DNA from: Thiotrichaceae bacterium
GTDB lineage: Bacteria > Pseudomonadota > Gammaproteobacteria > Thiotrichales > Thiotrichaceae
NCBI GenBank assembly: GCA_015486375.1
Contig: WFRR01000143.1
Location: 1-32,561, forward strand
DNA length: 32,561 nucleotides
Reading direction: 5' to 3'
In this document: positions 2,891 through 31,466 of the stretch, one piece after another
Numbering within the stretch: the first letter of the stretch is position 1
Layout of the letters: each line of letters opens with the position of its first letter
Notes under the pieces: model-generated
Told to the model about the DNA's origin: nothing
The model's input: only the letters and a program-made list of their open reading frames with translations
Database searches by the model: none
Translations under genes and position numbers: made by a program

Positions 2891-3913
2891 TTAGCCGTTA
2901 GGTGATTTTTCATGCGGACCAAGAAACCTGTCCCCATTGAAATGTATTAAGTGCTGAGGCGTATCAACTAGCCAAACTTCTGTTTCCCACGCTATTTGGG
3001 GAAGCCATCTTGCAAAATATTTTTTACTTAGAAATGCTGTTACAAAGACAACGCCGTACGGACAGTCTTTTAAAATACTGCGTTGCAATTCAATACACCG
3101 CTCAGGATTTAATGGATTTGAAGAGTGAACTGCTTCAATGAGATAAAGCCAGTTTTTCTTTGAGCTAAATGCAACAATGTCAGGCAACATTCCACGATCT
3201 TCGATATTGAGTCCAAGCTTTATCATTTGCTCTGAATATTCATGCATATGTTTGTTTGAAGTATCTCCAAGATATAGAACTTTGGCACTATATCCATATA
3301 TGGGAAGAAACTCTTCAATAACAGCTTTTTGGATTTTATTATGTGGTCCTTTATCCAGCGATACAACAACCCCTTTTTCTAAATGAACCTCAAGCTTTTC
3401 AAGTTCTCGTTTACTATGGAACTGGTCAATATATTCTTGATCAAGCTCAAATTCACTTAAAGCCTGAGTCCATTTTTCACTGCCATATTTTTTGATTAAT
3501 TCTGCAAAATTTTCTTCTAAAGCATAACCTCGTGTTCCATCATTAGTGTCTGCATCTGGTCTATTCGCACTTTTGATAACAAGCCCCATACCAACTAAAC
3601 GAATAAGATCTTTTCTCCTAATGTCGTCGTAACTTCCTAAGCTTATATTTTCTTCAAAATTTTTATTTATATAGGTAATAATTTCTCGCGTTCTTAAAAT
3701 ATGTCCATCAGTGATGGATGATATTTTATTCCAAGCTACCGATTTAGTCATGGCACAAAGAGACAATAACGACATTGACATCTTTTCTAGACGACGCACA
3801 GTAAGGTCTCCTATTGGAACACCTACAGCCTCTATTATCTCCACCCCTGACTGAATTAACTTCCGTACTTTGAGGGATTTATTCTTTGCTATTTTTTTCT
3901 TATCTACTGCCAT
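2891..3913 (-). CDS. BsuBI/PstI-family type II restriction endonuclease
   Basis: The 340-residue protein fits the BsuBI/PstI family (about 315-340 residues). The N-terminal half (1-180) is helical and probably contains the DNA-reading winged helices. The C-terminal half holds the nuclease core: RGMLPDIVAFS with Asp245, and LYLIEAVHSS with Glu260, followed by Arg/Glu-rich ERCIELQRSIL. This is the Pro-Asp...Glu arrangement typical of the family's PD-(D/E)xK fold. The C-terminal HLIHFNGDRFLGP also matches the family as I remember it, so the protein appears full length. It should cleave unmethylated host-specific sites; BsuBI and PstI themselves cut CTGCAG, but the site here cannot be read from sequence. 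The start overlaps the methyltransferase stop by 10 bp, so the nuclease is translated after the protecting methylase. No controller (C) protein gene is visible. Confidence 0.88.
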   Translation of the reverse strand: MAVDKKKIAKNKSLKVRKLIQSGVEIIEAVGVPIGDLTVRRLEKMSMSLLSLCAMTKSVAWNKISSITDGHILRTREIITYINKNFEENISLGSYDDIRRKDLIRLVGMGLVIKSANRPDADTNDGTRGYALEENFAELIKKYGSEKWTQALSEFELDQEYIDQFHSKRELEKLEVHLEKGVVVSLDKGPHNKIQKAVIEEFLPIYGYSAKVLYLGDTSNKHMHEYSEQMIKLGLNIEDRGMLPDIVAFSSKKNWLYLIEAVHSSNPLNPERCIELQRSILKDCPYGVVFVTAFLSKKYFARWLPQIAWETEVWLVDTPQHLIHFNGDRFLGPHEKSPNG

Positions 3914-4905
3914 GAAAATGCTAACTGCCCCTGCTGGCTTGTTTCTGTAATTTTTCCCTTAATGTATGCCAGCATCGCTTTTGCAATATGATATGACATT
4001 AAAGGCGGAACTGCATTTCCAACTTGATAAAACTGCGAACTTTCAGTTCCTTTAAATTTATACCAGTCAGGGAAGCTCTGTAATCTTGCACCTTCTCGGA
4101 CTGTTAATCTCTTTCTCCTCCCATCAGGCAACTTCACCCTAAGCATGTCTCCTGTAGCTCCTGCCAAATTTCTACAAGTAACTGTTCTTGATGGACGATC
4201 CATGTATAAGTCTCTTGGATTAATGCATTTAGATGCTTTTTCATATTTAGCAATATATGTATCTTGGCTTTTAGTTAGAAACTTACTATTTTTATCTGTT
4301 TTATATGCGATGTCTAAAATTGCATCACTCACAGTAAATTTAGCATCTTTTTCTATAGGAAATTGAAAACCTCCCTTATGACCAACAACCACAAGTCGCT
4401 CTCTATTTTGTGGTACTTCGTAGTTAGAAGCCTTCATTAATTGATAGCTTATTGTATAACCAAGTGACTCTAAGTTTTTTATTATTTCTTGAAGATATTC
4501 TTTATTTCTATACAACATCCCTCGAACATTTTCAAAGAGCCACATTTGAGGTTTTCTTTGTTTAACTGCATTTATAAACACAGGAAAACCATCTCTAGAA
4601 TCATCTAAACCTAGCTGCTTTCCACCTACACTAAAAGGCTGGCATGGTGGGCCACCTATAATAATATCTACCGCAGGAAAAATTGTATCTGTTGTCAAAA
4701 GCTCTTCATGACACTTTCCATCTAAGTTAGAATTATATGTTTCTACTGCATCTTTATCTTTTTCATACCCAACCGTCTCAAATCCCAAAGCCTCAAAGCC
4801 AAGAGCCAGCCCTCCACACCCAGCAAAAAGATCAAGAACCTTAAAATTGTTTTTTTCTACGCTCTTGAGACTCAATGATGTAAGGAGTTCTAAGTATTCA
4901 GACAT
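3904..4905 (-). CDS. C5-cytosine DNA methyltransferase (type II modification enzyme)
   Basis: The 333-residue protein shows the ordered motifs of m5C methyltransferases: motif I VLDLFAGCGGLALGF (23-37, SAM binding), motif IV GGPPCQPFS with catalytic Cys88, motif VI ENVRG (Glu125), motif VIII QNRERLVVVG (about 166-175), a short target-recognition stretch around RTVTCRNLAGATGD, motif IX RLTVREGARLQSFP and motif X QVGNAVPP. It transfers a methyl group to C5 of cytosine and protects DNA from the adjacent nuclease. The upstream region (4906-4972) is AT-rich; no strong ribosome site was found. The BsuBI and PstI systems use adenine-N6 methyltransferases, so this pairing with a C5 enzyme implies a different protecting base and possibly a different site. 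Confidence 0.95.
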   Translation of the reverse strand: MSEYLELLTSLSLKSVEKNNFKVLDLFAGCGGLALGFEALGFETVGYEKDKDAVETYNSNLDGKCHEELLTTDTIFPAVDIIIGGPPCQPFSVGGKQLGLDDSRDGFPVFINAVKQRKPQMWLFENVRGMLYRNKEYLQEIIKNLESLGYTISYQLMKASNYEVPQNRERLVVVGHKGGFQFPIEKDAKFTVSDAILDIAYKTDKNSKFLTKSQDTYIAKYEKASKCINPRDLYMDRPSRTVTCRNLAGATGDMLRVKLPDGRRKRLTVREGARLQSFPDWYKFKGTESSQFYQVGNAVPPLMSYHIAKAMLAYIKGKITETSQQGQLAFSWQ

Positions 4906-6501: not shown

Positions 6502-7980
6502 ATGTTGTACTCTAGTCTCTTGGTTTTGTTGTTTCTTCCCTTATTTGGCGCAATACTGATTGCAATATTACCGAGTAAACAAGTGAGGCTGATTCGTGCA
6601 ACGGCCATTGTCTTTTCAGGACTGAGCCTCCTCCTTTCTATCTATTTTATTACCTTTGGGGATATTACTCCGAACGATAAAGGTCTCTGGCTAAGCTATA
6701 CCCAAGAGTGGAATTCACGTTTAGGCACATCCTTTTCGATTGGTGTCGATGGTTTATCTTATGCAATGGTGATATTAACGACCCTCTTAGTTTGGGTTGC
6801 GGTCATGGCATCAGGCTCAATTAAAAAACATCCTAAAGGGTATTACCTGCTAATTCTTGGTTTAGAAACCGCGATTATTGGCGTGTTTATGGCAAGAGAT
6901 TGGGCATTGTTTTATGTTTTCTGGGAATTCACCTTAATTCCTTTGTTCTTTCTCATTGATCGCTGGGGCGATCGTGATCGACAAACGGCTTCATTAAAAT
7001 TTGTACTCTATACCATGGGCGGCTCGGTATTTATGCTACTGAGTTTATTAGTATTATTTGATGCAACCCCCGCACACTCTTTTTCCTTTGAAGCGATTGC
7101 TCAAGGCGCAAAAAGTTTAGACGAATCCGAGCAAGTATTACTATTTTTCGGCTTATTAATTGGCTTTGGGGTCAAAATGCCTATTTTCCCTTTGCACGGT
7201 TGGTTGCCACTGGCCGATGTTGAAGCACCTGGACCCATTAGTATTTTACTTTCAGGCATCTTATTAAAAATGGGGGCATACGGTTTGATTCAAACCACCA
7301 TGATGTTGCCATTAGCAGCCCATGCCTTACAAAGCTTACTAGTCATTTTAGCTTTAATTGCTATTATTTACGGTGGATTACTGGCATGGAAGCAAAGCGA
7401 TTTGAAAAAGATGATTGCTTATTCTTCCATTGCTCATATGGGCGTGGTGTTACTCGGTATATCGAGCTTAAACAGCAGTGGTATCACAGGTGCAATTTAT
7501 CAAATGATTGCCCACGGTTTTGTCGCAGGCGCATTGTTTATGCTTATTGGTTTGCTATATGAAAGAACCGATACTAAAGATATTAATGATTATGGTTCTT
7601 TGCTGTATACCACGCCAAAATTTGCTTTCTTTATTATTATTGGCTTTATTGCAGGGACGGGCTTACCTGGTACCGTCGGCTTTATTGCTGAATTACACGT
7701 TATGATCGGTGGCTTTGAGCAATGGGGCTGGTTAATGGCTTTCCTCGGTTTTGGAATATTAATTACGGCGGCCTATGGCATTCGTACCATTAAATATTTA
7801 TTTACAGGCCCTGAGAAAATGGAAATGCAAGCGGTGCAGGATTTACGTCCGACTGAAGTCTTAGCCGCTACGGTGTTAATCGTGGGTATTTTAGTTTTTG
7901 GTTTTTACCCCACACCGATTCTCGACATGATTAGCCACAATGTGGATCAATTTGTTCAATTAACTCAAATCAAGGGGTAA
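6502..7980 (+). CDS. NuoM-like antiporter subunit (first gene of expanded DAB operon)
   Basis: The 492-residue, strongly hydrophobic protein (about 14 membrane helices) belongs to the MrpD/NuoM/ND4 family. The ion-path residues are intact: Glu142 in FYVFWEFTLIP (helix 5), Lys225 in GFGVKMPIFPLHGWLP (helix 7) and Lys256 in ILLKMGAYGL (helix 8). It ends in GFYPTPILDM, typical for NuoM. No other complex I genes are near; the next gene, dabA, starts 4 bp after the stop. I infer that it works with DabA/DabB as an additional proton or sodium channel rather than in NADH dehydrogenase. The first ATG was chosen because it gives a normal NuoM N-terminus, although no ribosome site is visible. Confidence 0.88.
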   Translation: MLYSSLLVLLFLPLFGAILIAILPSKQVRLIRATAIVFSGLSLLLSIYFITFGDITPNDKGLWLSYTQEWNSRLGTSFSIGVDGLSYAMVILTTLLVWVAVMASGSIKKHPKGYYLLILGLETAIIGVFMARDWALFYVFWEFTLIPLFFLIDRWGDRDRQTASLKFVLYTMGGSVFMLLSLLVLFDATPAHSFSFEAIAQGAKSLDESEQVLLFFGLLIGFGVKMPIFPLHGWLPLADVEAPGPISILLSGILLKMGAYGLIQTTMMLPLAAHALQSLLVILALIAIIYGGLLAWKQSDLKKMIAYSSIAHMGVVLLGISSLNSSGITGAIYQMIAHGFVAGALFMLIGLLYERTDTKDINDYGSLLYTTPKFAFFIIIGFIAGTGLPGTVGFIAELHVMIGGFEQWGWLMAFLGFGILITAAYGIRTIKYLFTGPEKMEMQAVQDLRPTEVLAATVLIVGILVFGFYPTPILDMISHNVDQFVQLTQIKG

Positions 7981-7984
7981 AACA

Positions 7985-10900
7985 ATGATGGCTAGTTCAC
8001 CCAATATTGATCCGTCTCAAGCAATGTTTACAGATTTACTGGAACACCTCGCCCATGTCTTGCCTGCACAAGCACCGATTCTAGATTTTGTACATCACAA
8101 TACCTTGCATGGTTTTGAACATTTACCCTTTATAGAAGCATTAGCGGCTGCAAATAAGTTAACAGGTGCCTATGGCTATTGGCGACAAGCCACCTTTAGG
8201 GAAAAATATTTACAAGGGCGCATTAACGATGCCGATATTGCTTGGTCTTTATCGCAAGATGAAAGTCTAGAAGCAGATCGACTCGTGTTTCAAGCAGGTG
8301 ATCGTAAAATCACTAAGAAAGATATTTTACAAATTGCTTTGTTATTTCCGATTGAAAATATTACGACCTGTCAGTTTAACTTTCAAACGGATGAAGCCCA
8401 CGCATTAGAAAACTTTCAAACAGATATACCTAATTCAGTTCGCCGTAAACTTTTGAGCTTAGCCAAAGCCTACGGTCAAGATGATGAAGCAACCGCAATT
8501 AAGGAATTATGGACAGCCTGTAGTGAAGTGTTAAAGCTAGATGCAGAGTCGATTCATCCTGAAGACCTTAGTAATTTATCGCCACAATACGCGACAAAGA
8601 TGTTGGATAGCTTAGCTTTAGATTTGAAAAACAATGATTCTGAATCAAAATTAGAAGTGATTATTCGTAAAGAAGCATGGCTACAATTAGAGGCTTTATC
8701 AGATAAAGTCGGCTCAGAAATTACCTTACGCACCTTCTTACAACAGATTACAGGCATTGATATTCAGAAAGATATTAATACCTATTTACAACCGCATTTA
8801 GCTAGTTGGATAGACCAAGGCATTGCGGCTTGGAATGCTGAAGATCGTCAAATGGGCTTTTATCAAGCATGGAAAAAATCGGCATTACAGGATGAAAGCT
8901 GGCTTTTTAATGAGCTGGATGATTGGAAAGAGCATATTGAAGGCCTTCCTGATAATTCCATTGAAACCCTGATTTCTGAGCTAAGTTTGATGGGAATACC
9001 ACAAAATAAATGGGCAGCTTATCTTGAACGCTTAGCTTTAGATTTACCCGGTTGGTCTGGGATGTTTTATTGGCGACATTGCAATCCTGATTATGAAGGA
9101 TGCAGTGATATTAATGTTAATATGCTGGATTATCTAGCGGTACGTTTAGTGACAGAACACTTATATGCACGGCGTTTATGTCGCAAGTATTGGTTAATTG
9201 AAGCTAATCTAAGTGCCTTAAAAGGACAATTTCACCATCAATATCATGAGTTTTTAGTTCGCTACGCGCTCAATCAACAGCGTTTGCCTGAATATTTAAT
9301 TATGTTGGCACAACAATTGGTTGAACGTCACACCAATCAAACTAATTTAGAGCAAGAGTGGCAGTTGCTATCACATATGGTGTGGACATGGCGAAATAGC
9401 TCGCGTTCAGATGAACAAAAAAGTTATGTGCTACATCATGAAGCATGGAAACTATTCCGTTTAAGTCAACATTTAGGTTTGTGTAATAGTGATATCTATC
9501 CCCTCGACACTAAAACGTTAGACGATATTTTTGCATGTATTCACGAACTGGATCAGGAAAATTCAGGCTTTCTATTATTACAAGCCTATGAACACCACTA
9601 TCGGGAAGAAGTCTTTAGTGCAGTGGCTAATAATCATGGGCGAGGCACATGGGAAAATCGTAACACTCGTCCTGAAGCCCAGATTATTTTTTGTATGGAT
9701 GATCGTGAAGAGGGTGTACGTCGGCATTTAGAATTTTTAAATCCCAAGATTGAAACCTTTGGGGCGGCTGCCTTTTTTGGGGTTGTCATGAATTGGCAAG
9801 ACCTCGATGCCAAAAAGCCTGTGGTGCTTTGTCCTGTGGTGGTAACACCTGTACATCAGGTCGCAGAAATTGCTGCCTGTGGACATGAGCAGAACATTAA
9901 AGAGCATAAAAAACGCTATCAATTACGCAGTCAAATTAATGATGTGATTCATCAAGAAACCCGTCGTAATTTACTTACTAGTACCGCCTTAATGGGACTG
10001 AATGCTCCGCTGGCTTTATCGCGTTTAGTCGGAAAAATCTTTATGCCGCTAACATGGGGCAATATCGAAAAAAGTTTACAAACTAAATTTGATAAAGAAA
10101 AAGTCACGCGTATTACTAGCACGGCATTACAACAACGTAAAGATCGAGATACTAAAAACAATCAACAAGGTTTTACCCATGAGGAACAAGCCAATATTGT
10201 TGAAGGTTTTTTGCAAAATAATGGTTTATTGTCAGGCTTCGGACAGCTTGTGATTTTAATGGGGCATTACTCTAGTAATCAAAATAACCCACATACTGCA
10301 GCTTATGGTTGTGGTGCTTGTAGCGGTAAATACAGTGGTCCCAATGGTCGCGTTTTTGCGGCAATGGCAAATAATTCTGAAGTGCGGAATTTACTCTTTC
10401 AACGTGATATTAAAATTCCCGATGATTGCTGGTTTATCGGTGCAGAACACGACACCTGTAATGAAGATATTGCTTGGTTTGATCAAGATATTATTCCTAA
10501 AACTTTATCAGCAGCATTTCGTAAATTACAACAAGAGTTAGCTATTGCAACTCGACACTCCGCGCATGAACGCTGTCGAAAATTGGCATCTGCGCCCAGA
10601 AATCCAAACTTATCCCGTGCGATTAAACATATTGCCGCGCGGGCTGTTGATTTCTCACAATCACGTCCTGAATTAGGACATGCCACCAATGCTATTGGCT
10701 TTATTGGACGACGCTATTTAACTCAAGGAACATTCTTAGATCGACGCTGTTTTTTAATTTCTTATGATGCCAGTGTCGATCCAGAAGGAAAATTCTTAGA
10801 ACGTATTTTACTCTCAGCTGGTCCTGTTGGAGCAGGAATTAACCTTGAGTATTATTTCTCCTGTGTCAATAACGATAAGTTTGGTTGTAATTCTAAAATT

Positions 10901-11266
10901 GTACATAATTTGTCGGGTTTATTTGGAGTAATGGAAGGCACGTCCAGTGATTTACGTACTGGTCTACCGCAACAAATGATCGAAATTCACGAACCGATGC
11001 GTTTACAGCTAATGGTTGAAGCCAGCATAGAAACGTTAACAGCGATCTATCAACGCCAAGCTATGATCCGCCAATTAGTCGGCAATAACTGGCTATTACT
11101 CTCCTCTAAACATCCTGAAACAGGTGAAATTAATACTTTCAATCCTAAAAAAGGCTGGGAGCTTTGGCAAGCTCAGCAAGAAACCCCACGCGTTAATGAA
11201 TCTGTGGACTGGTATTCAGGTCACACCGATCATTTAGCACCTGCATTAATTAAAAGGAGTGCGTAA
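7985..11266 (+). CDS. dabA: DabA: zinc-containing subunit of the DAB inorganic carbon pump (DUF2309)
   Basis: The 1093-residue protein matches the DUF2309/UPF0753 family (DabA, MpsB). The carbonic-anhydrase-like zinc site known from Halothiobacillus DabA (Cys, Asp, His, Cys) can be read here: Cys570 and Asp572 in IIFCMDDREEGVRRHLE, His761 in LMGHYSSNQNNPH, and Cys776 in YGCGACSGKYSGPNGR. The His-Cys spacing of 15 is as in the characterised enzyme. The N-terminal LDFVHHNTLHGFEHLPF also fits the family. It is soluble and expected to sit on the cytoplasmic face of the membrane partner, hydrating CO2 to bicarbonate in one direction with energy from a cation gradient. It has a good ribosome site (AAGGGG) and is spaced 4 bp from the upstream gene and 2 bp from dabB. 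An ATG-ATG doublet leaves the start uncertain by one codon. At 1093 residues it belongs to the longer members of the family. Confidence 0.95.
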   Translation: MMASSPNIDPSQAMFTDLLEHLAHVLPAQAPILDFVHHNTLHGFEHLPFIEALAAANKLTGAYGYWRQATFREKYLQGRINDADIAWSLSQDESLEADRLVFQAGDRKITKKDILQIALLFPIENITTCQFNFQTDEAHALENFQTDIPNSVRRKLLSLAKAYGQDDEATAIKELWTACSEVLKLDAESIHPEDLSNLSPQYATKMLDSLALDLKNNDSESKLEVIIRKEAWLQLEALSDKVGSEITLRTFLQQITGIDIQKDINTYLQPHLASWIDQGIAAWNAEDRQMGFYQAWKKSALQDESWLFNELDDWKEHIEGLPDNSIETLISELSLMGIPQNKWAAYLERLALDLPGWSGMFYWRHCNPDYEGCSDINVNMLDYLAVRLVTEHLYARRLCRKYWLIEANLSALKGQFHHQYHEFLVRYALNQQRLPEYLIMLAQQLVERHTNQTNLEQEWQLLSHMVWTWRNSSRSDEQKSYVLHHEAWKLFRLSQHLGLCNSDIYPLDTKTLDDIFACIHELDQENSGFLLLQAYEHHYREEVFSAVANNHGRGTWENRNTRPEAQIIFCMDDREEGVRRHLEFLNPKIETFGAAAFFGVVMNWQDLDAKKPVVLCPVVVTPVHQVAEIAACGHEQNIKEHKKRYQLRSQINDVIHQETRRNLLTSTALMGLNAPLALSRLVGKIFMPLTWGNIEKSLQTKFDKEKVTRITSTALQQRKDRDTKNNQQGFTHEEQANIVEGFLQNNGLLSGFGQLVILMGHYSSNQNNPHTAAYGCGACSGKYSGPNGRVFAAMANNSEVRNLLFQRDIKIPDDCWFIGAEHDTCNEDIAWFDQDIIPKTLSAAFRKLQQELAIATRHSAHERCRKLASAPRNPNLSRAIKHIAARAVDFSQSRPELGHATNAIGFIGRRYLTQGTFLDRRCFLISYDASVDPEGKFLERILLSAGPVGAGINLEYYFSCVNNDKFGCNSKIVHNLSGLFGVMEGTSSDLRTGLPQQMIEIHEPMRLQLMVEASIETLTAIYQRQAMIRQLVGNNWLLLSSKHPETGEINTFNPKKGWELWQAQQETPRVNESVDWYSGHTDHLAPALIKRSA

Positions 11267-11268
11267 TT

Positions 11269-12828
11269 ATGCCTAATTGGAGTATTGCACTGATCCCATT
11301 GTTACCATTATTAGCCACTCTTTGGATTGCAGTCGGATTTAGCTTTGGTTGGAATCGGGCTGAAAAAGGTGAAAAAGAAACCGCCTATGTTGCCAGTATC
11401 AGCATATTGTTATCCTTTCTATTAGTACTGGGCGTAGATGTCAGTGTTTTTCTAGAAAGTGTCCAGAATCGTGTTCAAGTAGCAACATGGCTATCCACGG
11501 CAGATTATCAAATTACCATCGCCTTTATTTTAGATCAACTCAGCTTAACTATGGCGACTTTGGTTAGTTTCATTGGTTTATTGGTCACGCGCTTTTCAAT
11601 TAATTACTTACATCGAGAAGCAGGCTATCAACGCTTTTTTATGTTGCTGTCATTATTTAATGCAGCGATGTTACTGATTGCACTATCAGCCAATGCCGTT
11701 TTAACCTTTATCGCATGGGAATTAGCAGGGGTTAGCTCGTTTTTACTGATTGCTTATTCATGGCATCGTGATATTGCGACCCATAATGCCATTCGCGCCT
11801 TTATCAGTAATCGTATTGGTGATGCAGGATTTTTGCTTGGTATCGCACTTGCCTTCTTTTGGCTGGGTACCATTGAATGGACAGAGCTTGCAAGTGCCGC
11901 TAAAGAGAAAGATGTTTCAGAAATTTTTCTCAGTATTATCCTATTAGGATTTTTACTGGCTGCCTTAGCTAAATCAGCTCAGTTTCCTTTTTGTGCATGG
12001 ATCACACGCGCTTTAGAAGGTCCAACCCCCTCTAGCGCCATCTTTTACGGGGCGATTATGGTACATGCAGGCGTATATCTATTACTACGCTTACAGCCCT
12101 TACTAGAGCAAGTTCCTACTATCATGGTGATTATTATGATTATTGGCTTAATCACCGCGAGTTATGCCTATTTGGTCGGCTTGGTACAAACGGATGTTAA
12201 ATCATCCTTTATGTTTTCTACCCTTGCACAAGTCGGTTTAATGCTGGTTTGGATTGGTAATGCGTGGTTTAGTCTGGCATTAATTCATCTGGTGTTACAT
12301 GCAATTTGGAGAAGCTATCAATTTTTACACGCGCCTTCCTTTATGCAACAAATTAATCGTCCTGCCCGTCCCGTGCCTAAATGGCTAACGAAACAGTCAT
12401 GGCTATACAATGCTGCATTACAGCGTTTTTGGTTAGATAGTATTTCAGATTGGTTATTCACCAACCCAACCACAACAATTGCCCGTGAAGTACAGATTTT
12501 TGATGAGCAAATTGTTGATCGTTTAACGGGAACACAGTCCCACGCTAATATGCTGTCATCCTTATCACATTGGGAAGCCCATCAACAAGGTCGTTTGATT
12601 TTAAAAACTGAAATTGGCACAGGTAGTGGTTTATTTGGTAGTTTTATTCAAGGTTTAGCCGCTGCATTTTATTGGTTTGAAGAACACCTTATTCTTAAAA
12701 GTAGTGGTGAAGGTTTGTTAAAACTGATTCGTCATCTCGGTAAACACATGCAAAGTATCGACCGATTATTGACCCAACCACGCTATTTATTGTTGCTCAT
12801 TATGGCAACATTTGTTGTTGTATTGTAG
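11269..12828 (+). CDS. dabB: DabB: NuoL/MrpA-like membrane subunit of the DAB pump
   Basis: The 519-residue membrane protein of the NuoL/ND5 (proton-conducting transporter) family directly follows dabA, the standard DAB arrangement. Seen residues are Glu151 in FIAWELAGVSSFLLIAY and Lys235 in LAKSAQFPFCAWITRALEG, followed by PTPSSAIFYGAIMVHAGVYL, the NuoL-type helix 7/8 region. The N-terminal 340 residues hold the antiporter core. From about 345 to 490 the chain becomes more polar (YQFLHAPSFMQQINRP onward), probably the part that contacts DabA, and it ends with one more hydrophobic segment. DabB is thought to pass H+ or Na+ down its gradient to drive CO2 hydration by DabA. The ribosome site AAGGAG precedes the ATG. 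Confidence 0.92.
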   Translation: MPNWSIALIPLLPLLATLWIAVGFSFGWNRAEKGEKETAYVASISILLSFLLVLGVDVSVFLESVQNRVQVATWLSTADYQITIAFILDQLSLTMATLVSFIGLLVTRFSINYLHREAGYQRFFMLLSLFNAAMLLIALSANAVLTFIAWELAGVSSFLLIAYSWHRDIATHNAIRAFISNRIGDAGFLLGIALAFFWLGTIEWTELASAAKEKDVSEIFLSIILLGFLLAALAKSAQFPFCAWITRALEGPTPSSAIFYGAIMVHAGVYLLLRLQPLLEQVPTIMVIIMIIGLITASYAYLVGLVQTDVKSSFMFSTLAQVGLMLVWIGNAWFSLALIHLVLHAIWRSYQFLHAPSFMQQINRPARPVPKWLTKQSWLYNAALQRFWLDSISDWLFTNPTTTIAREVQIFDEQIVDRLTGTQSHANMLSSLSHWEAHQQGRLILKTEIGTGSGLFGSFIQGLAAAFYWFEEHLILKSSGEGLLKLIRHLGKHMQSIDRLLTQPRYLLLLIMATFVVVL

Positions 12829-12837
12829 GAGTGACTA

Positions 12838-14337
12838 ATGCAGTTTACTGAAATTCAAGCCACATGGCCGTTATTAGAAAGCCTACAACTCGTACCCCTG
12901 ATATTTGCACTTATTTTCTGGCATTTCAAAGGCGCAATGAGTGCAGGCTTTGCTTTACTCACTGCAGTTATAGAGTTTGCATTAGCAATTTATCTCTATC
13001 TAAACTTTGATGCCCATTTGGATAGTATGCAATTTGCTAATCAGGTCAATCTGCTGGGTTTACCTTATCATGCTGCTGTGGATGGCATTAGTGTTGTATT
13101 TGTATTATTGACTGCACTATTGGGCTTACTGTCTGTATTTTTTATTATTTTTAGAAGCTTCTATCACACCAATATATTAGCCGTTATTGCCTTTATTCAA
13201 GCAACTTTAATGAGTCAATTTGTCACCGTAGATTTGCTTTGGTTTACTGTGATGTCAATACTAGAGATCATCGCGACAGGTTACTTACTCTATCGTTGGG
13301 CAACCTTTGTCGATGGTAAGCCAATGATTATTCGTTACTCACAATTTATGAGTATCAGTATTCTATTGTTATTGGTCGGCACTTTTATGTTGGGCTGGAA
13401 TCATTCAATGGCAAATGATTCATGGTCATTTGATTTGTATGATTTAAGTACCACAACCGTCGCGCCTGAAATTGCGACCTTTATATTCTTTTCACTCTTC
13501 TATGCATTGGGTATACGGATTCCAATATTCCCCTTGCATGGTTGGTTACCCATGACAATGCAATACGGCAATGTGACCATTGCGCCTATTTTACTCTTAG
13601 GTTTAAAAGTTGGATTTTTTGGTTTATTGCGCTTTGTATTTCCTATCCTTCCTGATGCGGTTAAAGAGTGGAATAACATTGCCATTATCTTTGCCATGAT
13701 TGGAATTTTCTACGCCGCGTTATTAGCAATGCGACAAAATGATTTACGTCGCTTAATGGCATACGGTGTCATTAGTCATACAGGTATTTTAACGATCGGC
13801 TTATTTACTTTAAATCGCGCAGGTTTTGAAGGCAGTATTATGCTGGCGATTAACTTTGGCTTAGCGATTTCAGGCTTAATGTTTATGACAGGTTTGGTCT
13901 TTCATCGCACTAAAACAGCAGCGATGGATCACCTTGGTGGACTATTCCAATATATGCCTTTAGTCGGAGTGGCTTTTCTTATTGCAGGCTTAGCCATTGT
14001 GGCAATGCCTGGAACACCAGGATTCGATGCAGTACATTTAGTTTTGGAAGCATCCATTTCTGAGTTTGGAGCATTAACAACCGCCGCAGCCGCTTTAGGC
14101 AATGTGACTGCAGCAGGTTTCTTATTGTATGCTTTTCAACAAGCCTTTTTAGCTAAACCAGAATTCAGTACGGCTGCTTGGGATAAAAGCCCCTCTAAAA
14201 TAACCGAGAAAATTATGGCAATCAGTATTATTTTCGTCGTTTTAGGAATGGGATTTTTCTCATCACTTTGGTTAGATTTATTTGAACATACACTGAATGG
14301 ACTAACGAGTTTATACAGTAAGGGCGAAGGTCACTAG
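12838..14337 (+). CDS. Diverged NuoM/NuoN-like antiporter subunit in DAB operon
   Basis: This 499-residue, about 14-helix membrane protein is of the proton-conducting transporter family, but key residues have changed. Where its sister subunits have the helix 5 glutamate (FWE), this one has Met139 (LLWFTVMSILEII), with a glutamate four residues later (Glu143). The helix 7 lysine is Arg227 (YALGIRIPIFPLHGWLP). The helix 8 lysine is kept (Lys257 in GLKVGFFGLLRF). The usual GxxxE motif in the later core reads MPGTPGFDAVHLVLE. It may therefore be a structural or gating subunit, or conduct ions by a shifted path. The gene is preceded by AGGAG, starts 9 bp after dabB and abuts the next gene (1-bp gap), so all five genes are probably translated from one transcript. 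Confidence 0.85.
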   Translation: MQFTEIQATWPLLESLQLVPLIFALIFWHFKGAMSAGFALLTAVIEFALAIYLYLNFDAHLDSMQFANQVNLLGLPYHAAVDGISVVFVLLTALLGLLSVFFIIFRSFYHTNILAVIAFIQATLMSQFVTVDLLWFTVMSILEIIATGYLLYRWATFVDGKPMIIRYSQFMSISILLLLVGTFMLGWNHSMANDSWSFDLYDLSTTTVAPEIATFIFFSLFYALGIRIPIFPLHGWLPMTMQYGNVTIAPILLLGLKVGFFGLLRFVFPILPDAVKEWNNIAIIFAMIGIFYAALLAMRQNDLRRLMAYGVISHTGILTIGLFTLNRAGFEGSIMLAINFGLAISGLMFMTGLVFHRTKTAAMDHLGGLFQYMPLVGVAFLIAGLAIVAMPGTPGFDAVHLVLEASISEFGALTTAAAALGNVTAAGFLLYAFQQAFLAKPEFSTAAWDKSPSKITEKIMAISIIFVVLGMGFFSSLWLDLFEHTLNGLTSLYSKGEGH

Positions 14338-14338
14338 C

Positions 14339-15814
14339 ATGGAACTACACAGTATGGATTTTTCGTGGCTAAGCACATTAATACTGCTGTTGCCATTGGG
14401 TGCAGTCGTCACATTATTGCTTTCTGAGCAGCACGCACGTTGGTCAGCGTTAGCAACTAACCTTGTTGTACTGATACTGAGCTTAGGCATTGCATTTAAT
14501 TTTGATCCTCAATTAAGTGGCTTTCAGTACGTTGAAAAATCAGAATGGATTCGCTCATTAAATATTAATTTTTTCTTAGGTGTAGATGGTCTTTCCGTCC
14601 TATTCCTACCTGCAACCGCGCTCTTATTTACAGCGGTTACATTAGCATCATGGAACTCCATTCAGAAACTACGTCGAATTTACTTTAGCCTTATACTATT
14701 ATTGGAATGCACCATTCTTGGCGTATTTACCTCGTTAGATACGATGTTCTTTATTCTATTTTGGGAAAGTACGCTAATTCCTTTGTACTTCTTAATTAGC
14801 TTATGGGGAGTCGGAGCAAACCGTCGTCATGCTGCAACTAAATATGTATTATTTATGATGGCGGGTGGAATTCCAATTATGTTTGCCTTTATTTTATTGG
14901 CAATTCAAGCAGATGGAAACTATATTTTTGACTACACCCAACTGCTAACACTGAAAGAAGCTAATCCTTATGAAACAGTAATATTTTTCTTGTTGCTGTT
15001 CGGCTTTGGTATCAAAACCCCCTTATTCCCTTTGCATACATGGCTACCTTTAGTCTCTCAAGAAGGGCATCCCGTTATGATTGCAACTGTGATTGGTTTA
15101 AAGCTGGGGGCATACGGACTACTACGCTTTGCTGTACCGCTTGCACCGACTGCCGCAGAAACCTTTCAAGGTTTATTAATTGCACTAGGAATTATTGGTG
15201 TTATTTATGGTGCAGTCGCGGCATTAAATCAAACCAATCTACGTCGTATGCTAGCTTTTTCAAGCTTAAGTCATGCGGGTATGATTTTGTTAGGTATTGC
15301 AACCTTTAGTCAAGCAGGCATACAAGGTGCTGTGTTTCAGCTTTTAAATTTAAGCCTGATTGTAGGCGGATTATTTTTATTGACAGGGTTTTTACATCAG
15401 CGTATTGGCTCAAACGATATTATTAGTTTAGGTGGTGTTGCAAAAAGTATGCCCTTACTCAGTGCCTTTTTCTTCTTTCTTGGGCTGGCTAATATGGGTA
15501 TTCCTGCCACCAGTGTGTTTCCTGCGGAATTATTAATTACCTTGAGTGTGTTAGATCAATATACAGGAGTCGGTCTTGCCATATTATTTGGCATTATTCT
15601 TACTGCTGCTTATTTCCTCAATATTTACCGTAAAGCATTCTTAGGCGAGTGCCGCCATTCAATCGTTGCCAATGCCATTGACCTAAAGGCTCGCGAGAAA
15701 TTGATTATCATGACGCTATCATTATTAGTGTTGGTCTTTGGTTTATATCCACAAGTCATACTCGATACGCTGAGTGTTTCCAGTACGGCTTGGGTTGAAT
15801 TGTTAAAACGCTAA
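14339..15814 (+). CDS. NuoM-like antiporter subunit (last gene of expanded DAB operon)
   Basis: The 491-residue MrpD/NuoM-family membrane protein has the ion-path residues: Glu143 in FFILFWESTLIPLYFLISLW, Lys226 in FGFGIKTPLFPLHTWLP and Lys255 in VIGLKLGAYGLLRF. It is a separate paralogue of the first gene and not a recent copy, since the sequences differ throughout. It ends in FGLYPQVILDTL. An AAGG ribosome site lies within the end of the preceding gene. No terminator is visible: only 9 bp separate its stop from the stop of the convergent queD, with a small CGCTATAGCG palindrome inside queD's end. I infer a role as a third standard cation channel in the expanded carbon-uptake complex. An unrelated antiporter role is the alternative. 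Confidence 0.87.
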   Translation: MELHSMDFSWLSTLILLLPLGAVVTLLLSEQHARWSALATNLVVLILSLGIAFNFDPQLSGFQYVEKSEWIRSLNINFFLGVDGLSVLFLPATALLFTAVTLASWNSIQKLRRIYFSLILLLECTILGVFTSLDTMFFILFWESTLIPLYFLISLWGVGANRRHAATKYVLFMMAGGIPIMFAFILLAIQADGNYIFDYTQLLTLKEANPYETVIFFLLLFGFGIKTPLFPLHTWLPLVSQEGHPVMIATVIGLKLGAYGLLRFAVPLAPTAAETFQGLLIALGIIGVIYGAVAALNQTNLRRMLAFSSLSHAGMILLGIATFSQAGIQGAVFQLLNLSLIVGGLFLLTGFLHQRIGSNDIISLGGVAKSMPLLSAFFFFLGLANMGIPATSVFPAELLITLSVLDQYTGVGLAILFGIILTAAYFLNIYRKAFLGECRHSIVANAIDLKAREKLIIMTLSLLVLVFGLYPQVILDTLSVSSTAWVELLKR

Positions 15815-20513: not shown

Positions 20514-21111
20514 ATACCTTCCTATTTAATTTCGTAGAAATGTAAATAAATATTAATAACAAACTCAGTATAGTCATATAAATTATACTAAATTTATAAA
20601 AATAATCGATAGGAAATAACTGTGTTAAACGACTTTCAGGGTAAAATATCCACGTATTGTTAGTAAAAAATAGCTTATGAAGCGAATGAAATAGATAAAT
20701 AAATTCTTCCGATAAAACCAAACATAACAATAATAAAATACTAGCAAAGCCTAAATAAACCATTTTAGTAAGTAAATTATTAATATTTAGGTAAAACATA
20801 GCGATAAGAAAAATACAGATATTAATTATACAACTAAATACTAGTACCTTATCATTAAAAGAAAATAATATTTTTACATCTAATAAATGTCGTTTTTCAT
20901 AAACATTTAAATAGTTAACATTAAATAAACCATAATAGTGTTGATCTAAGAGATAATCAATCGTCTCTCTTTGCCATGTAGAATGCTGAACAAAATCAGT
21001 ATAATTATATAATAATATCACCCATATCGTACAACATAAGCAAAAAAGGCAAAAAAAACTAATTGAATAATAAAGTATTTCTGTTAAAAACCGTTGCTTA
21101 ATTCGCTCCAT
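20512..21111 (-). CDS. DUF1461 / Lit-like integral membrane protein
   Basis: The 199-residue protein has about five membrane helices. It resembles the DUF1461 (TIGR01906, Lit) family: an N-terminal helix, an outer loop with YYGLFNVNYLNVYEKRHLLD and VKILF, and the signature FHSLHKLFFTNNTWIFYPES followed by RLTQLFPIDYFYK near the end. In Firmicutes, Lit moves an acyl chain within lipoproteins to make lyso-form lipoproteins; the role of distant gammaproteobacterial relatives is not known to me. Its start lies inside the end of the Calx-beta gene (28-bp overlap), so the two are translationally linked. A lipoprotein cytochrome is encoded just upstream of that pair. AT content is higher than in its neighbours. 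Confidence 0.65.
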   Translation of the reverse strand: MERIKQRFLTEILYYSISFFCLFCLCCTIWVILLYNYTDFVQHSTWQRETIDYLLDQHYYGLFNVNYLNVYEKRHLLDVKILFSFNDKVLVFSCIINICIFLIAMFYLNINNLLTKMVYLGFASILLLLCLVLSEEFIYLFHSLHKLFFTNNTWIFYPESRLTQLFPIDYFYKFSIIYMTILSLLLIFIYISTKLNRKV

Positions 21112-22658
21112 GCTACTGTCTGTGTGTAATCGGCAATATTATCACCACTGGTATCGGTATCAATCGTAACAGAAGTATTGCTATTCACTGTTACAGTAAT
21201 ATTCATAGTAGCATCTTGACGTTGAATGGTGAATTTTCCCTCATAAGGATAACTATCAGCAGGGTGGATTTTTAGAGTATTCACAATCTCTGTACTATAC
21301 GTACCATTATTGGAACTATTACTTAAAGTTAGTGTGCTGGTATAGGTCTGAATTTTACGCTCATCCGAAAGTTGCTCTGTAACAACTTGTGTACTCAAAT
21401 TGCTAAAAGCATAATTAATTCCTGCACTGCTTAATTGTAAATTACTGGATGTAATCGCTAATACATCATCACCCGTATCTGTTAGTGTAGTTTCAGTACC
21501 TAATAAACCATTAAAATTACTATCTGTTGTTCCATCATTAACCGCTAGATTTGTTAATGTTACAGCGGTATTTGTAATTGTGCCATTAACACTGCTGATA
21601 TTAAGATTATAAGCTCCCGTGGAACTTGTTGTTCCATCTTGACAAGCATTTGTGGTAATTAACAAATTATCACCTGCACTTGAATACAGATTATCTGCAT
21701 TATTATCTGTCACTGTATATTCAAAAGTGCCACTGCTTGGGCAGTCCAATATTCGACTATTAAGGTTAAGTGCAAGCGTGAATGCAATGGGATCTTTTAA
21801 CAGATCAGGTTGATCTAATAAAGTTTGTACACTTAACATAGCAGGAATACCTGCTAACATTGTTTTAGTTAGACTTCTTGCAATCGCTTGAGTGTTATCT
21901 ACAGCAGCAAAATCATCATTTAAAATTGTATGAGTTGCAACAACTTCAGTAATATCTGTCGGAAATATTCCTCCAAGAGGGTTGCTTAAGACTAAATCAA
22001 AGGTTTCATTATTTTCTTGACTACTATCACCTAAAATAGGCACGGCAATTAAGGTCTTAGTTTCTCCTGCTGCAATAGTGGCTGTACCTGATACGGTAGT
22101 ATAATCTTGTCCCGCTACTGCAGTACCGTCACGGGTTCGATAATCTACAGAAGCATTAACACTTAATGCTTCTCCTAGTTCTAAAAGAAAGTAGTTGGTG
22201 AGATTACTATTCGTTTCACTAAAGCTGGTTTTAATATCATCATTTAAAATCGTATGCGTCACGCTCAATTCTGATATACCTTCTGGAAATATTCCCCCCG
22301 AAGGGTTTGTGAGCAATAATGAAAACGTTTCATCGCCTTCAACAGTAGTATCACCAATAATTTCGACGGGAATCAATACACTACTTTTTCCTGCATCAAT
22401 GCTAATTATTCCAGATTTAGTAATATAATCACTGCCTGCTAAGGCTGTGCCATTTTTGGTTTGATAACTGACTGTTGCATCAACACTTAAGGGAGTACTT
22501 AAGGCTACTTTGAAGTAATTAATATGGTTACTTGTGCCTTCATAAAAACTGCTCTTAGCTACATTAGCTGCAACTACGGATATATTATTTATTGATATAA
22601 AAATTAGTACATAAACATATATCCATCGTCTTTTAAAAGTATTAAACATTATTTTCAT
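21084..22658 (-). CDS. Secreted protein with two Calx-beta domains
   Basis: The 524-residue protein has an N-terminal export signal (hydrophobic segment about 13-31 after Lys/Arg residues). Two tandem Calx-beta domains follow: about 36-142 (SYQTKNGTALAGSDYITKSG ... DETFSLLLTNPSGG ... HTILNDD) and about 143-252 (DYRTRDGTAVAGQDYTTVSG ... HTILNDD). Calx-beta domains are beta-sandwiches that often bind calcium in surface proteins. Residues 253-524 are Thr/Ser/Asn-rich and beta-like, with no family I recognise; no membrane anchor is seen at the C-terminus. The first domain is clearly related to the Calx-beta domain of the cytochrome lipoprotein encoded upstream. The gene overlaps the DUF1461 gene, so a joint function at the cell surface is likely but unspecified. 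Confidence 0.82.
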   Translation of the reverse strand: MKIMFNTFKRRWIYVYVLIFISINNISVVAANVAKSSFYEGTSNHINYFKVALSTPLSVDATVSYQTKNGTALAGSDYITKSGIISIDAGKSSVLIPVEIIGDTTVEGDETFSLLLTNPSGGIFPEGISELSVTHTILNDDIKTSFSETNSNLTNYFLLELGEALSVNASVDYRTRDGTAVAGQDYTTVSGTATIAAGETKTLIAVPILGDSSQENNETFDLVLSNPLGGIFPTDITEVVATHTILNDDFAAVDNTQAIARSLTKTMLAGIPAMLSVQTLLDQPDLLKDPIAFTLALNLNSRILDCPSSGTFEYTVTDNNADNLYSSAGDNLLITTNACQDGTTSSTGAYNLNISSVNGTITNTAVTLTNLAVNDGTTDSNFNGLLGTETTLTDTGDDVLAITSSNLQLSSAGINYAFSNLSTQVVTEQLSDERKIQTYTSTLTLSNSSNNGTYSTEIVNTLKIHPADSYPYEGKFTIQRQDATMNITVTVNSNTSVTIDTDTSGDNIADYTQTVAWSELSNGF

Positions 22659-22860
22659 TCACATTCATAAAAACCTGTAGTACTAGCTGTATGATCTTTC
22701 TCATAATTCAATACCCATCCACTATTTTTTCAATATTATAAAAATTAACTAAAAACAAGCTACATTTTTCTAAAATCACTGTTATGACGATACTCATCAG
22801 AGATAATATACCGAATAAGGATAAATTCTTAACGAATATATAAACTATACTCTACCGCAT

Positions 22861-22893
22861 AAACATCAATCCCTACTAAGGGAATTGATGTTT
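22861..22893 (-). terminator. Hairpin downstream of the nine-haem cytochrome gene
   Basis: AAACATCAATCCC pairs with GGGAATTGATGTTT (one bulged base) around a short loop. It lies 10 bp after the stop of the cytochrome gene. On the minus strand the stem ends in GATGTTT, a weak T-tract, so it is a probable terminator or a 3' stabilising hairpin. Confidence 0.6.
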
Positions 22894-22902
22894 ATTGCCA
22901 GA

Positions 22903-29735: not shown

Positions 29736-31466
29736 ATGACACTTACTTCCCTGTTCCCCTTTTTAGTTTGGTTTAGACTCGTAACAAGAGATTCTATTAA
29801 GGCTGATCTTTTGGCTGGCTTAACTGGGGCTGTTATCGTACTACCGCAAGGTGTTGCATTTGCAACCATTGCAGGTTTACCTCCTGAATATGGACTTTAT
29901 ACGGCAATGGTGACACCAGTCATTGCCGCCTTATTCGGTTCATCTTTTCATTTAGTTTCTGGTCCAACAACCGCTATTTCTATTGTAATTTTTTCTGCTA
30001 TTAGTCACCATGCTGAGCCAGGAACACCTGAGTTCTTATCATTAGCATTGACACTAACGTTTCTTGCAGGTGTTTATCAATTAGCTTTTGGTCTAGCGAG
30101 ACTTGGTGCATTAGTAAATTTTGTTTCTCATACCGTTGTTATTGGTTTTACCGCAGGGGCAGCTATCCTAATTGCAACCAGCCAAGTTAAGCATATAACA
30201 GGTATTTTTGTCCCCAAAGGTGAGTCCTTTTTACATACGTGGGCTGATTTATATCAAGGCATTGGAGAGATAAATTTTTACTTGATATTAATTGCTGTCA
30301 TTACTTTATTGACCGCGATTGCAACTAAAAAAGTATTTCCCAAAATCCCTAATCTTTTAATTGGAATGATTATTGGTAGTTTTGCCGCTTTATATCTAAA
30401 AGATTACACCTCGGGTATTAAATTAGTCGGTGAAATACCTGCACATTTACCGCCTTTTTCAATGCCCGACTTCTCATTTGTATCGATAAGAATGTTAGCA
30501 CCTGAAGCATTTGCAGTGGCTTTACTCGGCTTAATCGAAGCAGTATCTATCAGTCGAGCAGTTGCAACCAAGTCAGAACAACGTATTAATTCCAATCAAG
30601 AATTTGTAGGGCAGGGAATGTCTAATATGTTTGGTAGCTTCTTTTCCAGTTATGCAGGTTCCGGGTCTTTTACACGTTCAGGCGTGAATTATGAAGCAGG
30701 TGCAAAAACACCACTTTCAGCCATTTTTGCAGCCATTTTCTTAGTGATTATTGTTTTATTAATTGCGCCATTAACAGCCTATCTTCCAATTGCGGCAATG
30801 GGCGGAATCATACTACTCGTTGCCTATAACCTAATCGATATACATCATATAAAACAGACATTAAGTTTTAGTAAATCAGAATCTACCATCTTATTAACAA
30901 CATTTGCAGCAACTTTATTCCTTGAATTAGAGTTTGCGATTTATCTGGGTGTGCTTTTATCGCTGATCTTGTTCTTAGCCAAGACATCGACCCCGAATAT
31001 TCCAATACTCTCAATTGATGCTGATTCTGATAATAACCATCGAAAATTCATCGCTGTTGATGAAAAACCAATCCAAGAATGTCCACAGTTAAAAATAATA
31101 CGTATTGATATGTCTATCTATTTTGGTTCTGTCAATCATATCCAAAAGTGTATTTCTGACATCACCGAAAAGGAAAAAATAAAGCATATTCTGATTGAAG
31201 CCAGTGGCATTAATTTTATAGACCTTGCAGGGGCAGAAGTCCTCGTTGCTGAGAATAGACGATTAATAAAACAAAATGGTGGACTCTATTTTGTAGGTTT
31301 AAAACCTTCTGTATATGAATTTGCAGCTAAATCCTGTTTTATTAAGCAAATAGGCAATAATCATTTCTTTGATACTAAATCACAAGTCATTCATCATATT
31401 TACAGCCGTTTAGACAAAAAAACTTGTTCTCAGTGTAAAGTGAAAATATTTAATGAGTGCAAATAA
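29736..31466 (+). CDS. SulP-family anion transporter with STAS domain
   Basis: The 576-residue protein has the SulP membrane core (10-14 helices, about 1-430) with the family's LLAGLTGAVIVLPQGVAFA and GLPPEYGLYTAMVTPVIAAL near the start and SGPTTAISIVIFS. A cytoplasmic STAS domain (about 440-555; IRIDMSIYFGSVNHI, HILIEASGINFIDLAG) follows. The tail ends Cys-Ser-Gln-Cys and Asn-Glu-Cys, a small cysteine cluster not general to the family. SulP proteins carry sulfate, bicarbonate (BicA) or other anions. In an autotrophic sulfur oxidiser both bicarbonate import and sulfate movement are plausible; the substrate cannot be set here. No clear ribosome site precedes the ATG. The preceding 115 bp hold no further gene. 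Confidence 0.9.
   Translation: MTLTSLFPFLVWFRLVTRDSIKADLLAGLTGAVIVLPQGVAFATIAGLPPEYGLYTAMVTPVIAALFGSSFHLVSGPTTAISIVIFSAISHHAEPGTPEFLSLALTLTFLAGVYQLAFGLARLGALVNFVSHTVVIGFTAGAAILIATSQVKHITGIFVPKGESFLHTWADLYQGIGEINFYLILIAVITLLTAIATKKVFPKIPNLLIGMIIGSFAALYLKDYTSGIKLVGEIPAHLPPFSMPDFSFVSIRMLAPEAFAVALLGLIEAVSISRAVATKSEQRINSNQEFVGQGMSNMFGSFFSSYAGSGSFTRSGVNYEAGAKTPLSAIFAAIFLVIIVLLIAPLTAYLPIAAMGGIILLVAYNLIDIHHIKQTLSFSKSESTILLTTFAATLFLELEFAIYLGVLLSLILFLAKTSTPNIPILSIDADSDNNHRKFIAVDEKPIQECPQLKIIRIDMSIYFGSVNHIQKCISDITEKEKIKHILIEASGINFIDLAGAEVLVAENRRLIKQNGGLYFVGLKPSVYEFAAKSCFIKQIGNNHFFDTKSQVIHHIYSRLDKKTCSQCKVKIFNECK

What the first reader, a model, noticed from the sequence alone, without database searches (positions are those of the whole stretch)
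6502..15814. Expanded DAB carbon pump: DabA-DabB embedded among three extra NuoM-like channels
Seen: five genes with gaps of 4, 2, 9 and 1 bp encode NuoM-like, DabA, DabB (NuoL-like), diverged NuoM/N-like and NuoM-like proteins; no other complex I subunits are present. DabA keeps the zinc ligands Cys570, Asp572, His761 and Cys776. Known: the characterised DAB/MpsAB pump has one DabA and one DabB and uses a cation gradient to drive one-way CO2 hydration. Inference: four antiporter-like subunits on one DabA would make a larger machine that couples more ions per bicarbonate or reaches a higher concentration gradient. I do not know whether this arrangement has been described.
Basis: partly seen in the sequence, partly recalled or inferred. 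Interest (0 to 1): 0.75.

Follow-up and report, generated by a model that had tools for sequence, protein, structure and literature searches.

The report
Five-gene carbon-dioxide pump with degenerate subunit
A conserved set of five genes in sulfur bacteria, methane eaters and others appears to encode an enlarged, membrane-powered machine that turns CO2 into bicarbonate, combining a known CO2-converting enzyme with four proteins related to the ion channels of respiratory complex I, of which two keep every ion-channel residue checked, one is shortened and one is altered in a fixed way.

Summary
Five genes (6502-15814, gaps 4/2/9/1 bp) encode NuoM-like P1, DabA, DabB, diverged P4 and NuoM-like P5. 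The order recurs in 56 complete loci (Thiotrichaceae, Methylobacter/Crenothrix and relatives, Magnetococcales, clam symbionts). In six genomes the genes are scattered or fused but all five are kept; in one genus DabB and P4 are a single 1045-aa protein. The genome has its own complete complex I, so these are not spare parts of it. Residue checks change the reading. P1 and P5 keep all four complex I channel residues tested. P4 has lost or changed three of them in 68/68 sequences, as has the single extra subunit of planctomycete three-gene systems. DabB appears to lack TM12-15 and keeps a TM5 Glu that two-gene DabB proteins lack (0/53). DabA keeps the zinc site but lacks the finger Glu essential in DAB2 (0/77). 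Best reading: a PMF-driven vectorial CO2 hydratase with core DabA-DabB-P4 plus two pump-competent modules, coupled differently from DAB2; two full ion channels, not four. Co-occurrence of DabA, NuoL and NuoM genes, and a subunit-number/ion-number idea, were published in 2017 (COGNAT); I found no description of the five-gene composition, P4 or the coupling switch. No assay exists.

The parts
6502..7980 (+). P1: NuoM-like antiporter subunit, 492 aa; E142, K225, K256, E397 (TM5/TM7/TM8/TM12 channel residues) all kept
   Evidence: PF00361 245 bits; NuoM TIGR01972 483 bits; residues kept in 72-73 of 73 orthologues (positions); sister clade of complex I NuoM
7985..11266 (+). DabA: beta-CA-like catalytic subunit, 1093 aa
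   Evidence: PF10070 754 bits; aligns to DabA2 9rd0_A, E=8e-63; AF2 model pLDDT 84
9692..9706 (+). DabA C570-x-D572-x-R574: zinc ligand Cys and Asp-Arg dyad
   Evidence: invariant in 161 DabA; positions
10265..10312 (+). DabA H761 and C776: zinc ligands
   Evidence: H 161/161, C 160/161; positions
9887..10042 (+). DabA finger hairpin (res 635-686); the position of DAB2 Glu444 is G671, no acidic residue in the second finger helix
   Evidence: AF2 helices 635-661 and 663-686; Glu absent in 77/77 five-gene DabA, present in all 54 DabA of the two-gene clade
11269..12828 (+). P3 = DabB: NuoL-like, 519 aa; TM1-11, then non-membrane C-terminal part and one C-terminal TM
   Evidence: PF00361/PF00662; hydropathy; AF2 and Foldseek to NuoL 3rko_B, 1.6 A over 358 columns
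11719..11721 (+). DabB E151 (TM5 Glu; Ile151 in DabB2 of DAB2)
   Evidence: Glu in 74/74 orthologues, 0/53 two-gene DabB
12370..12534 (+). DabB res 368-422: segment resembling the NuoL/NdhF lateral-helix region
   Evidence: profile match to NdhF 560-615, E=0.0025, weak
12838..14337 (+). P4: degenerate NuoM-like subunit, 499 aa; I141 (no TM5 Glu), R227 (TM7 Lys to Arg), K257 kept, V399 (no TM12 Glu)
   Evidence: 68/68 orthologues; shared with the three-gene antiporter; fused to DabB in L166/L210
14339..15814 (+). P5: NuoM-like antiporter subunit, 491 aa; E143, K226, K255, E397 kept
   Evidence: PF00361 183 bits; residues kept in 65/65 orthologues (positions)

Best explanation
The five genes encode one enlarged DAB-type complex: a membrane-anchored, PMF- (or cation-gradient-) driven vectorial carbonic anhydrase making bicarbonate from CO2 in the cytoplasm. 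DabA does the chemistry at a Cys2His zinc site. DabB (NuoL-like, TM1-11 only) and P4 (NuoM-like, channel residues changed) form the constant membrane core that holds DabA; the minimal form of this lineage is the planctomycete three-gene set. P1 and P5 are added modules with intact channel residues; inward ion flow through them would drive CO2 hydration by long-range charge coupling as in complex I, replacing the proton path that in DAB2 runs through DabB and Glu444 of the DabA finger. The job is likely bicarbonate supply for carboxylations generally, since several hosts have no detectable Rubisco. Shown by computation: gene content, conservation, co-retention, fusion, residue changes, loss of hydrophobic TM12-15 segments. 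Inferred: physical assembly of all five, ion flow through P1 and P5, direction, ions per bicarbonate.
For: Same order and strand in 56 complete loci. Three genomes keep a compact P1-P3-P4-P5 operon while their only DabA found lies elsewhere. G130 and G260 keep P1 and P5 as lone genes, DabA alone, and DabB-P4 as one protein; G390 is split into three places. A second DabB-antiporter fusion, in L103. P4 orthologues (>=539 bits, next score 344) in 17 of 369 genomes, 16 with DabA, against 83/369 overall. P1 72/73 and P5 65/65 keep four channel residues; P4 changed in 68/68; three-gene antiporter changed likewise and sister to P4 (0.957). DabB TM5 Glu 74/74 against 0/53. Zinc site invariant, finger Glu absent. 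Own complex I complete. DAB2 precedent: PMC13144422.
Against: No biochemical or proteomic data; no complex modelled, since the tool folds single chains. The residue switches fall on one deep split of the DabA tree, so they are about one evolutionary event and cannot establish causality. Co-retention shows functional linkage, not contact, except where genes are fused. P4 keeps its TM8 Lys (68/68) and often has a Glu (52/68) or Gln (13/68) two residues past the TM5 site, so it may not be inert. 23 of 77 five-gene DabA have Asp at the finger position. Some lineages have orphan DabA without a nearby antiporter.
Confidence: 0.6

Rival explanations
1. Structural rather than stoichiometric: P1, P4 and P5 belong to the complex but only scaffold, anchor or assemble it; coupling still uses about one proton path, so the ion:bicarbonate ratio equals that of DAB2.
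For: P4 is degenerate in all sequences; planctomycetes manage with one degenerate extra subunit; DabB keeps K235, S256, K311, H340, H344 of the NuoL-type path, with Arg at 348.
Against: P1 and P5 keep every channel residue across distant lineages, unexpected for scaffolds; DabB has lost TM12-15 and DabA its finger Glu, so the DAB2 path looks incomplete.
Confidence: 0.18
2. Two machines in one operon: DabA-DabB(-P4) hydrates CO2, while P1 and P5 form a separate Mrp-like antiporter that balances pH or Na+ for it.
For: P1 and P5 move away as single genes in G130/G260 while DabA and DabB-P4 stay adjacent; another genome has DabA inside a complete Mrp-type operon.
Against: None of the small Mrp subunits (B, C, E, F, G) is in the five-gene cluster (gaps of 1-9 bp); P1, P4 and P5 group with NuoM rather than with the MrpD included; order and set are conserved over wide distances.
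Confidence: 0.13
3. It runs the other way (the COGNAT 2017 idea): the DabA reaction is exergonic and the subunits pump ions out.
For: By analogy to complex I several antiporter subunits would allow pumping; proposed in PMC5700660.
Against: Characterised relatives hydrate CO2 and accumulate DIC at the expense of PMF (PMC13144422); CO2/bicarbonate interconversion yields little energy; the zinc site is invariant.
Confidence: 0.06
4. The NuoM-like proteins are extra or replacement subunits of complex I.
For: P1 is the sister clade of NuoM and scores above the NuoM cut-off.
Against: The genome has one NuoH and a full NuoL/M/N set beside it; P1-P5 stay with DabA/DabB, not with nuo genes; P4 lacks channel residues.
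Confidence: 0.03

Closest known systems
DAB2 / DAC complex (DabA2-DabB2, Halothiobacillus neapolitanus; PDB 9rd0; PMC13144422)
   Same: DabA family with the same Cys2His zinc site and Asp-Arg dyad; NuoL-like DabB with conserved Lys/His path and K235/D185/R182; DabA finger hairpin predicted.
   Different: DAB2 has two subunits, DabB TM12-15 present, DabB Ile151, finger Glu444 essential; two-gene relatives read here have the DabB gene before DabA. Here: five subunits, DabB without TM12-15, Glu151, no finger Glu, DabA gene before DabB.
DAB1 (hneap_0907-0909) and MpsAB
   Same: DabA/DabB pair supplying DIC; DAB1-type DabA is of similar length (about 1040-1060 aa).
   Different: DabB gene first, at most a small TM protein added, no NuoM-like subunits; finger Glu kept in the long two-gene type.
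COGNAT 'clade C' operons: YbcC (DabA) upstream of NuoL homologue with NuoM and/or SulP (PMC5700660, 2017)
   Same: Same gene polarity and presence of extra NuoM; the authors suggested that the number of membrane genes reflects the number of ions.
   Different: No function assigned; pumping outward proposed; three distinct NuoM-like positions, degenerate P4, shortened DabB, residue switch, scattering and fusions are not mentioned in the text read.
Respiratory complex I membrane arm (NuoL/M/N) and cyanobacterial NDH-1MS CO2-hydration complexes
   Same: Several antiporter-like subunits of the NuoL/NuoM type; vectorial CO2 hydration by NDH-1MS is a functional analogue (named in PMC13144422).
   Different: No redox or quinone module here; the catalytic subunit is DabA, unrelated to CupA/CupB (own knowledge).
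Mrp Na+/H+ antiporter
   Same: PF00361 subunits; one related genome has DabA within an Mrp-type operon (L154/L212).
   Different: No small Mrp subunits in the five-gene cluster; P1, P4 and P5 are NuoM-type.

Membership tests
DabA family (PF10070) | Pfam profile match over the whole domain | tested here: met
   754 bits, cut-off 25
DabA family (PF10070) | Zinc site Cys/His/Cys plus Asp-Arg dyad | tested here: met
   C570, H761, C776, D572, R574; near-invariant in 161 DabA
Two-subunit DAB2-type pump | Only DabA and DabB | tested here: not met
   Four PF00361 genes with one DabA, conserved in 56 loci
Two-subunit DAB2-type pump | Essential Glu444 in the DabA finger | tested here: not met
   Gly at the aligned position, no acid in the helix; 0/77 five-gene DabA have Glu
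Two-subunit DAB2-type pump | DabB with TM12-15 that receive the finger | tested here: not met
   No hydrophobic segments between about 345 and 500; AF2 C-terminal part low confidence and not a TM bundle
Two-subunit DAB2-type pump | DabB lacks the TM5 Glu (Ile151) | tested here: not met
   E151, 74/74 in the group
DAB / DIC-accumulating complex (function) | PMF-dependent DIC accumulation, rescue of CA-deficient cells | not testable with these tools
   Needs expression and assay
Respiratory complex I | Redox, quinone and NuoH/A/J/K subunits with the antiporters | tested here: not met
   None in the cluster; the single NuoH is on C109 with its own L/M/N
Mrp antiporter | Small subunits MrpB/C/E/F/G with MrpA/D | tested here: not met
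   Gaps of 1-9 bp leave no room; none flanking
Functional antiporter subunit (NuoM-type) for P1 and P5 | TM5 Glu, TM7 Lys, TM8 Lys, TM12 Glu | tested here: met
   72-73/73 and 65/65
Functional antiporter subunit (NuoM-type) for P4 | TM5 Glu, TM7 Lys, TM8 Lys, TM12 Glu | tested here: not met
   Only TM8 Lys kept; Arg at TM7 68/68; no Glu at TM5 or TM12

The most novel reading that the evidence does not exclude
A third class of CO2 pump: a DabA catalytic head on a complex-I-like multi-subunit antiporter arm (DabA-DabB-P4 core plus pump modules P1 and P5). The proton path of two-subunit DABs has been replaced by long-range coupling to two dedicated NuoM channels, so that several ions are spent per bicarbonate, a redox-free relative of complex I's coupling mechanism.
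Probability: 0.4. Interest if true: 0.85.

Novelty: new variant of a known kind. Interest (0 to 1): 0.62.

Why it matters
How distant antiporter-like subunits are coupled to chemistry is a central open question of complex I. Here the same kind of subunits seems coupled to a redox-free reaction, with naturally varying numbers of modules (DabA-DabB; DabA-DabB-P4; five-subunit; Thiothrix seven-gene), which makes the relation between module number and ion stoichiometry directly testable. It also warns that such 'orphan NuoM' genes score as complex I subunits in annotation but belong with a CO2 pump, and it shows this pump in hosts without a detected Rubisco gene, such as the Methylobacter genomes checked.

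Tried and rejected
Complex I spare parts: rejected, complete complex I elsewhere. Mrp operon: rejected, no small subunits. Carboxysome-linked CCM: no BMC shell protein in the genome, Rubisco scores as PRK13475, which I read as form II, no beta-CA; alpha/gamma CA not tested. Plasmid search with P4 found only NuoM-level matches of 27-31%. Fold comparison of DabA with the PDB gave nothing, apparently because the library (entries to April 2026) lacks 9rd0; sequence comparison does find 9rd0. HHalign of the DabB C-terminus with NuoL was not significant; the lateral-helix resemblance rests on one weak profile hit. Promoter/terminator scans were near shuffle level. Distance-matrix correlations between the five proteins are high (0.90-0.96), but shared ancestry alone gives this, so they are not used as evidence.

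Full report
OBSERVATION. The five ORFs are at 6502-7980, 7985-11266, 11269-12828, 12838-14337 and 14339-15814, all on +, with gaps of 4, 2, 9 and 1 bp. I call them P1, DabA, P3 (DabB), P4 and P5. DabA matches PF10070 at 754 bits; the others carry PF00361, and P3 also PF00662. P1, P4 and P5 score above the NCBIfam NuoM subfamily cut-off (483, 268 and 439 bits against 263.8). The window is a whole contig of a 2.67 Mb, 97% complete draft genome. Named close relatives are Thiotrichaceae (Cocleimonas, Leucothrix, Thiothrix).

GENOME CONTEXT. The genome has one DabA and seven PF00361 genes: four here and three beside the only NuoH on contig C109. P1, P4 and P5 are therefore not the missing parts of a complex I. 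There is one Rubisco matching PRK13475, which I read as form II from its length and model, no BMC shell protein and no beta-CA (alpha and gamma CA not tested).

CONSERVATION. Using DabA as bait in named genomes, in the order and in 369 sampled genomes of the class, and reading the neighbourhoods, the order P1-DabA-P3-P4-P5 on one strand is found in 56 complete loci, the window included: Thiotrichaceae, Methylobacter, Crenothrix and other Methylococcaceae, Magnetococcales, a Solemya symbiont, Ca. Thiodiazotropha, a Rhodocyclaceae MAG and others. Thiothrix has a seven-gene form with a second DabA-DabB pair inserted (L051, L083). Planctomycetes and a few others have DabA-DabB plus one antiporter. 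Most other DabA genes in the class belong to two-gene systems with DabB first.

CO-RETENTION AND FUSION. In G039, G044 and G019 the four membrane genes form a compact operon with no DabA between P1 and P3, and the only DabA found is elsewhere. In G130 and G260, P1 and P5 are lone genes on other contigs or far away, DabA stands alone, and DabB and P4 are one 1045-aa protein. In G390 the set is split into P1-DabA, DabB, and P4-P5. A separate fusion of DabB with a P4/P5-like protein occurs in L103. P4 orthologues, clearly separated in score (>=539 against <=344 bits), occur in 17 of 369 genomes; 16 of them have DabA against 83 of 369 overall, and the exception is 77% complete with a contig starting inside P4. 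This supports one functional unit of five products, with contact between DabB and P4.

RESIDUES. Four residues of the complex I antiporter channel were read from alignments. P1 keeps all four in 72 of 73 and P5 in 65 of 65. P4 never has the TM5 Glu at the canonical position, has Arg for the TM7 Lys in 68/68, keeps the TM8 Lys in 68/68, and has Ala, Val, Gly or Ile for the TM12 Glu in 68/68. A Glu (52/68) or Gln (13/68) two residues past the TM5 site may partly replace it. The single extra subunit of three-gene systems lacks the TM5 Glu as well, has Arg for the TM7 Lys in 8/9, lost the TM12 Glu in 8/9, and is the sister clade of P4 (support 0.957). The five-gene set therefore looks like the three-gene core plus two intact modules; P1 is the sister of NuoM (0.999).

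DabB. The first 350 residues match NuoL (AF2 model to 3rko_B, 1.6 A over 358 columns). TM12-15 of NuoL and DabB2 appear absent: no hydrophobic segment between about 345 and 500, and the AF2 model shows low-confidence helices there. A short part (368-422) resembles the lateral-helix region of NdhF (E=0.0025), which is weak. The TM5 Glu is present in 74/74 DabB of this group and in those of three-gene systems, and in none of 53 two-gene DabB proteins with the DabB-first order. Of the DabB with Glu but no extra subunit in sight, most lie on cut contigs or are fused (L103, L115, L118, L121); L202 is a real exception. DabB2 has Ile151 there, and restoring Glu in DAB2 halves growth (PMC13144422).

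DabA. The zinc site and Asp-Arg dyad are kept in essentially all 161 DabA. Glu444 of the membrane finger, essential in DAB2, is present in all 54 members of the two-gene clade and absent in all 106 of the other half of the DabA tree. In the window the position is Gly671 and the second finger helix has no acid; 23 sequences, those shown being of the Methylobacter type, have Asp. The finger hairpin itself is predicted.

MECHANISM. Because the DAB2 path (DabB TM12-13 plus finger Glu) looks dismantled while two intact NuoM channels are added and the DabB TM5 Glu is kept, I infer that ion entry runs through P1 and P5 and is coupled to DabA through the antiporter array, as in complex I. P4 would be the fixed partner of DabB. 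Shown: gene facts and residues. Inferred: assembly, ion path, direction, stoichiometry. The residue correlations rest on essentially one deep split of the tree and are not independent events.

ROLE. Of 16 genomes carrying the cluster, 4 have a Rubisco hit; none of the Methylobacter/Methylococcaceae or Magnetococcales genomes tested does. General bicarbonate supply, as for MpsAB, fits better than a Rubisco-specific CCM.

PRIOR WORK. COGNAT (PMC5700660) reported in 2017 that DabA (YbcC) upstream of NuoL often comes with NuoM and SulP genes and proposed that subunit number tracks ion number. The 2026 DAB2 structure paper and the 2024 DIC review, as searched here, do not mention multi-NuoM systems. 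Desmarais 2019 was not held, and Schmid 2021, cited in that review, was not read, so novelty is stated with that gap.

Noticed in passing
L154:386-9102 (-), L212:4877-14001 (-) (genome G087): DabA followed by a complete Mrp-type operon (MrpE, F, G, B, B, C, D, NuoL-like, NuoM-like) with SulP upstream; another way of pairing DabA with an antiporter array, branching at the base of the two-gene DabA clade.
   Followed up: partly
L051, L083 (Thiothrix), also L053 and L123: Seven-gene form P1-DabA-DabB-DabA'-DabB'-P4-P5 with a second DabA, 42-44% identical to the window's.
   Followed up: partly
L055, L056, L057, L133, L116, L044:1075-4329: Orphan DabA genes with no antiporter gene nearby; in some genomes the membrane genes sit elsewhere, in others a second, complete cluster exists.
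   Followed up: partly
L103:12880-16041 (+): DabB fused to a P4/P5-like antiporter (1054 aa) in a deltaproteobacterial MAG, separate from the G130/G260 fusion.
   Followed up: partly
window 29736-31466 (+): SulP transporter with STAS domain (PF00916, PF01740) 14 kb downstream on the same contig; SulP genes often lie near DabA, so it may carry bicarbonate.
   Followed up: no
window 2891-4905 (-): Restriction-modification pair: BsuBI/PstI-type endonuclease with a C5-cytosine DNA methylase, an unusual-looking combination.
   Followed up: no
window 21084-25125 (-): Two Calx-beta proteins, one with a multihaem cytochrome c7/c3-like part (740 aa).
   Followed up: no
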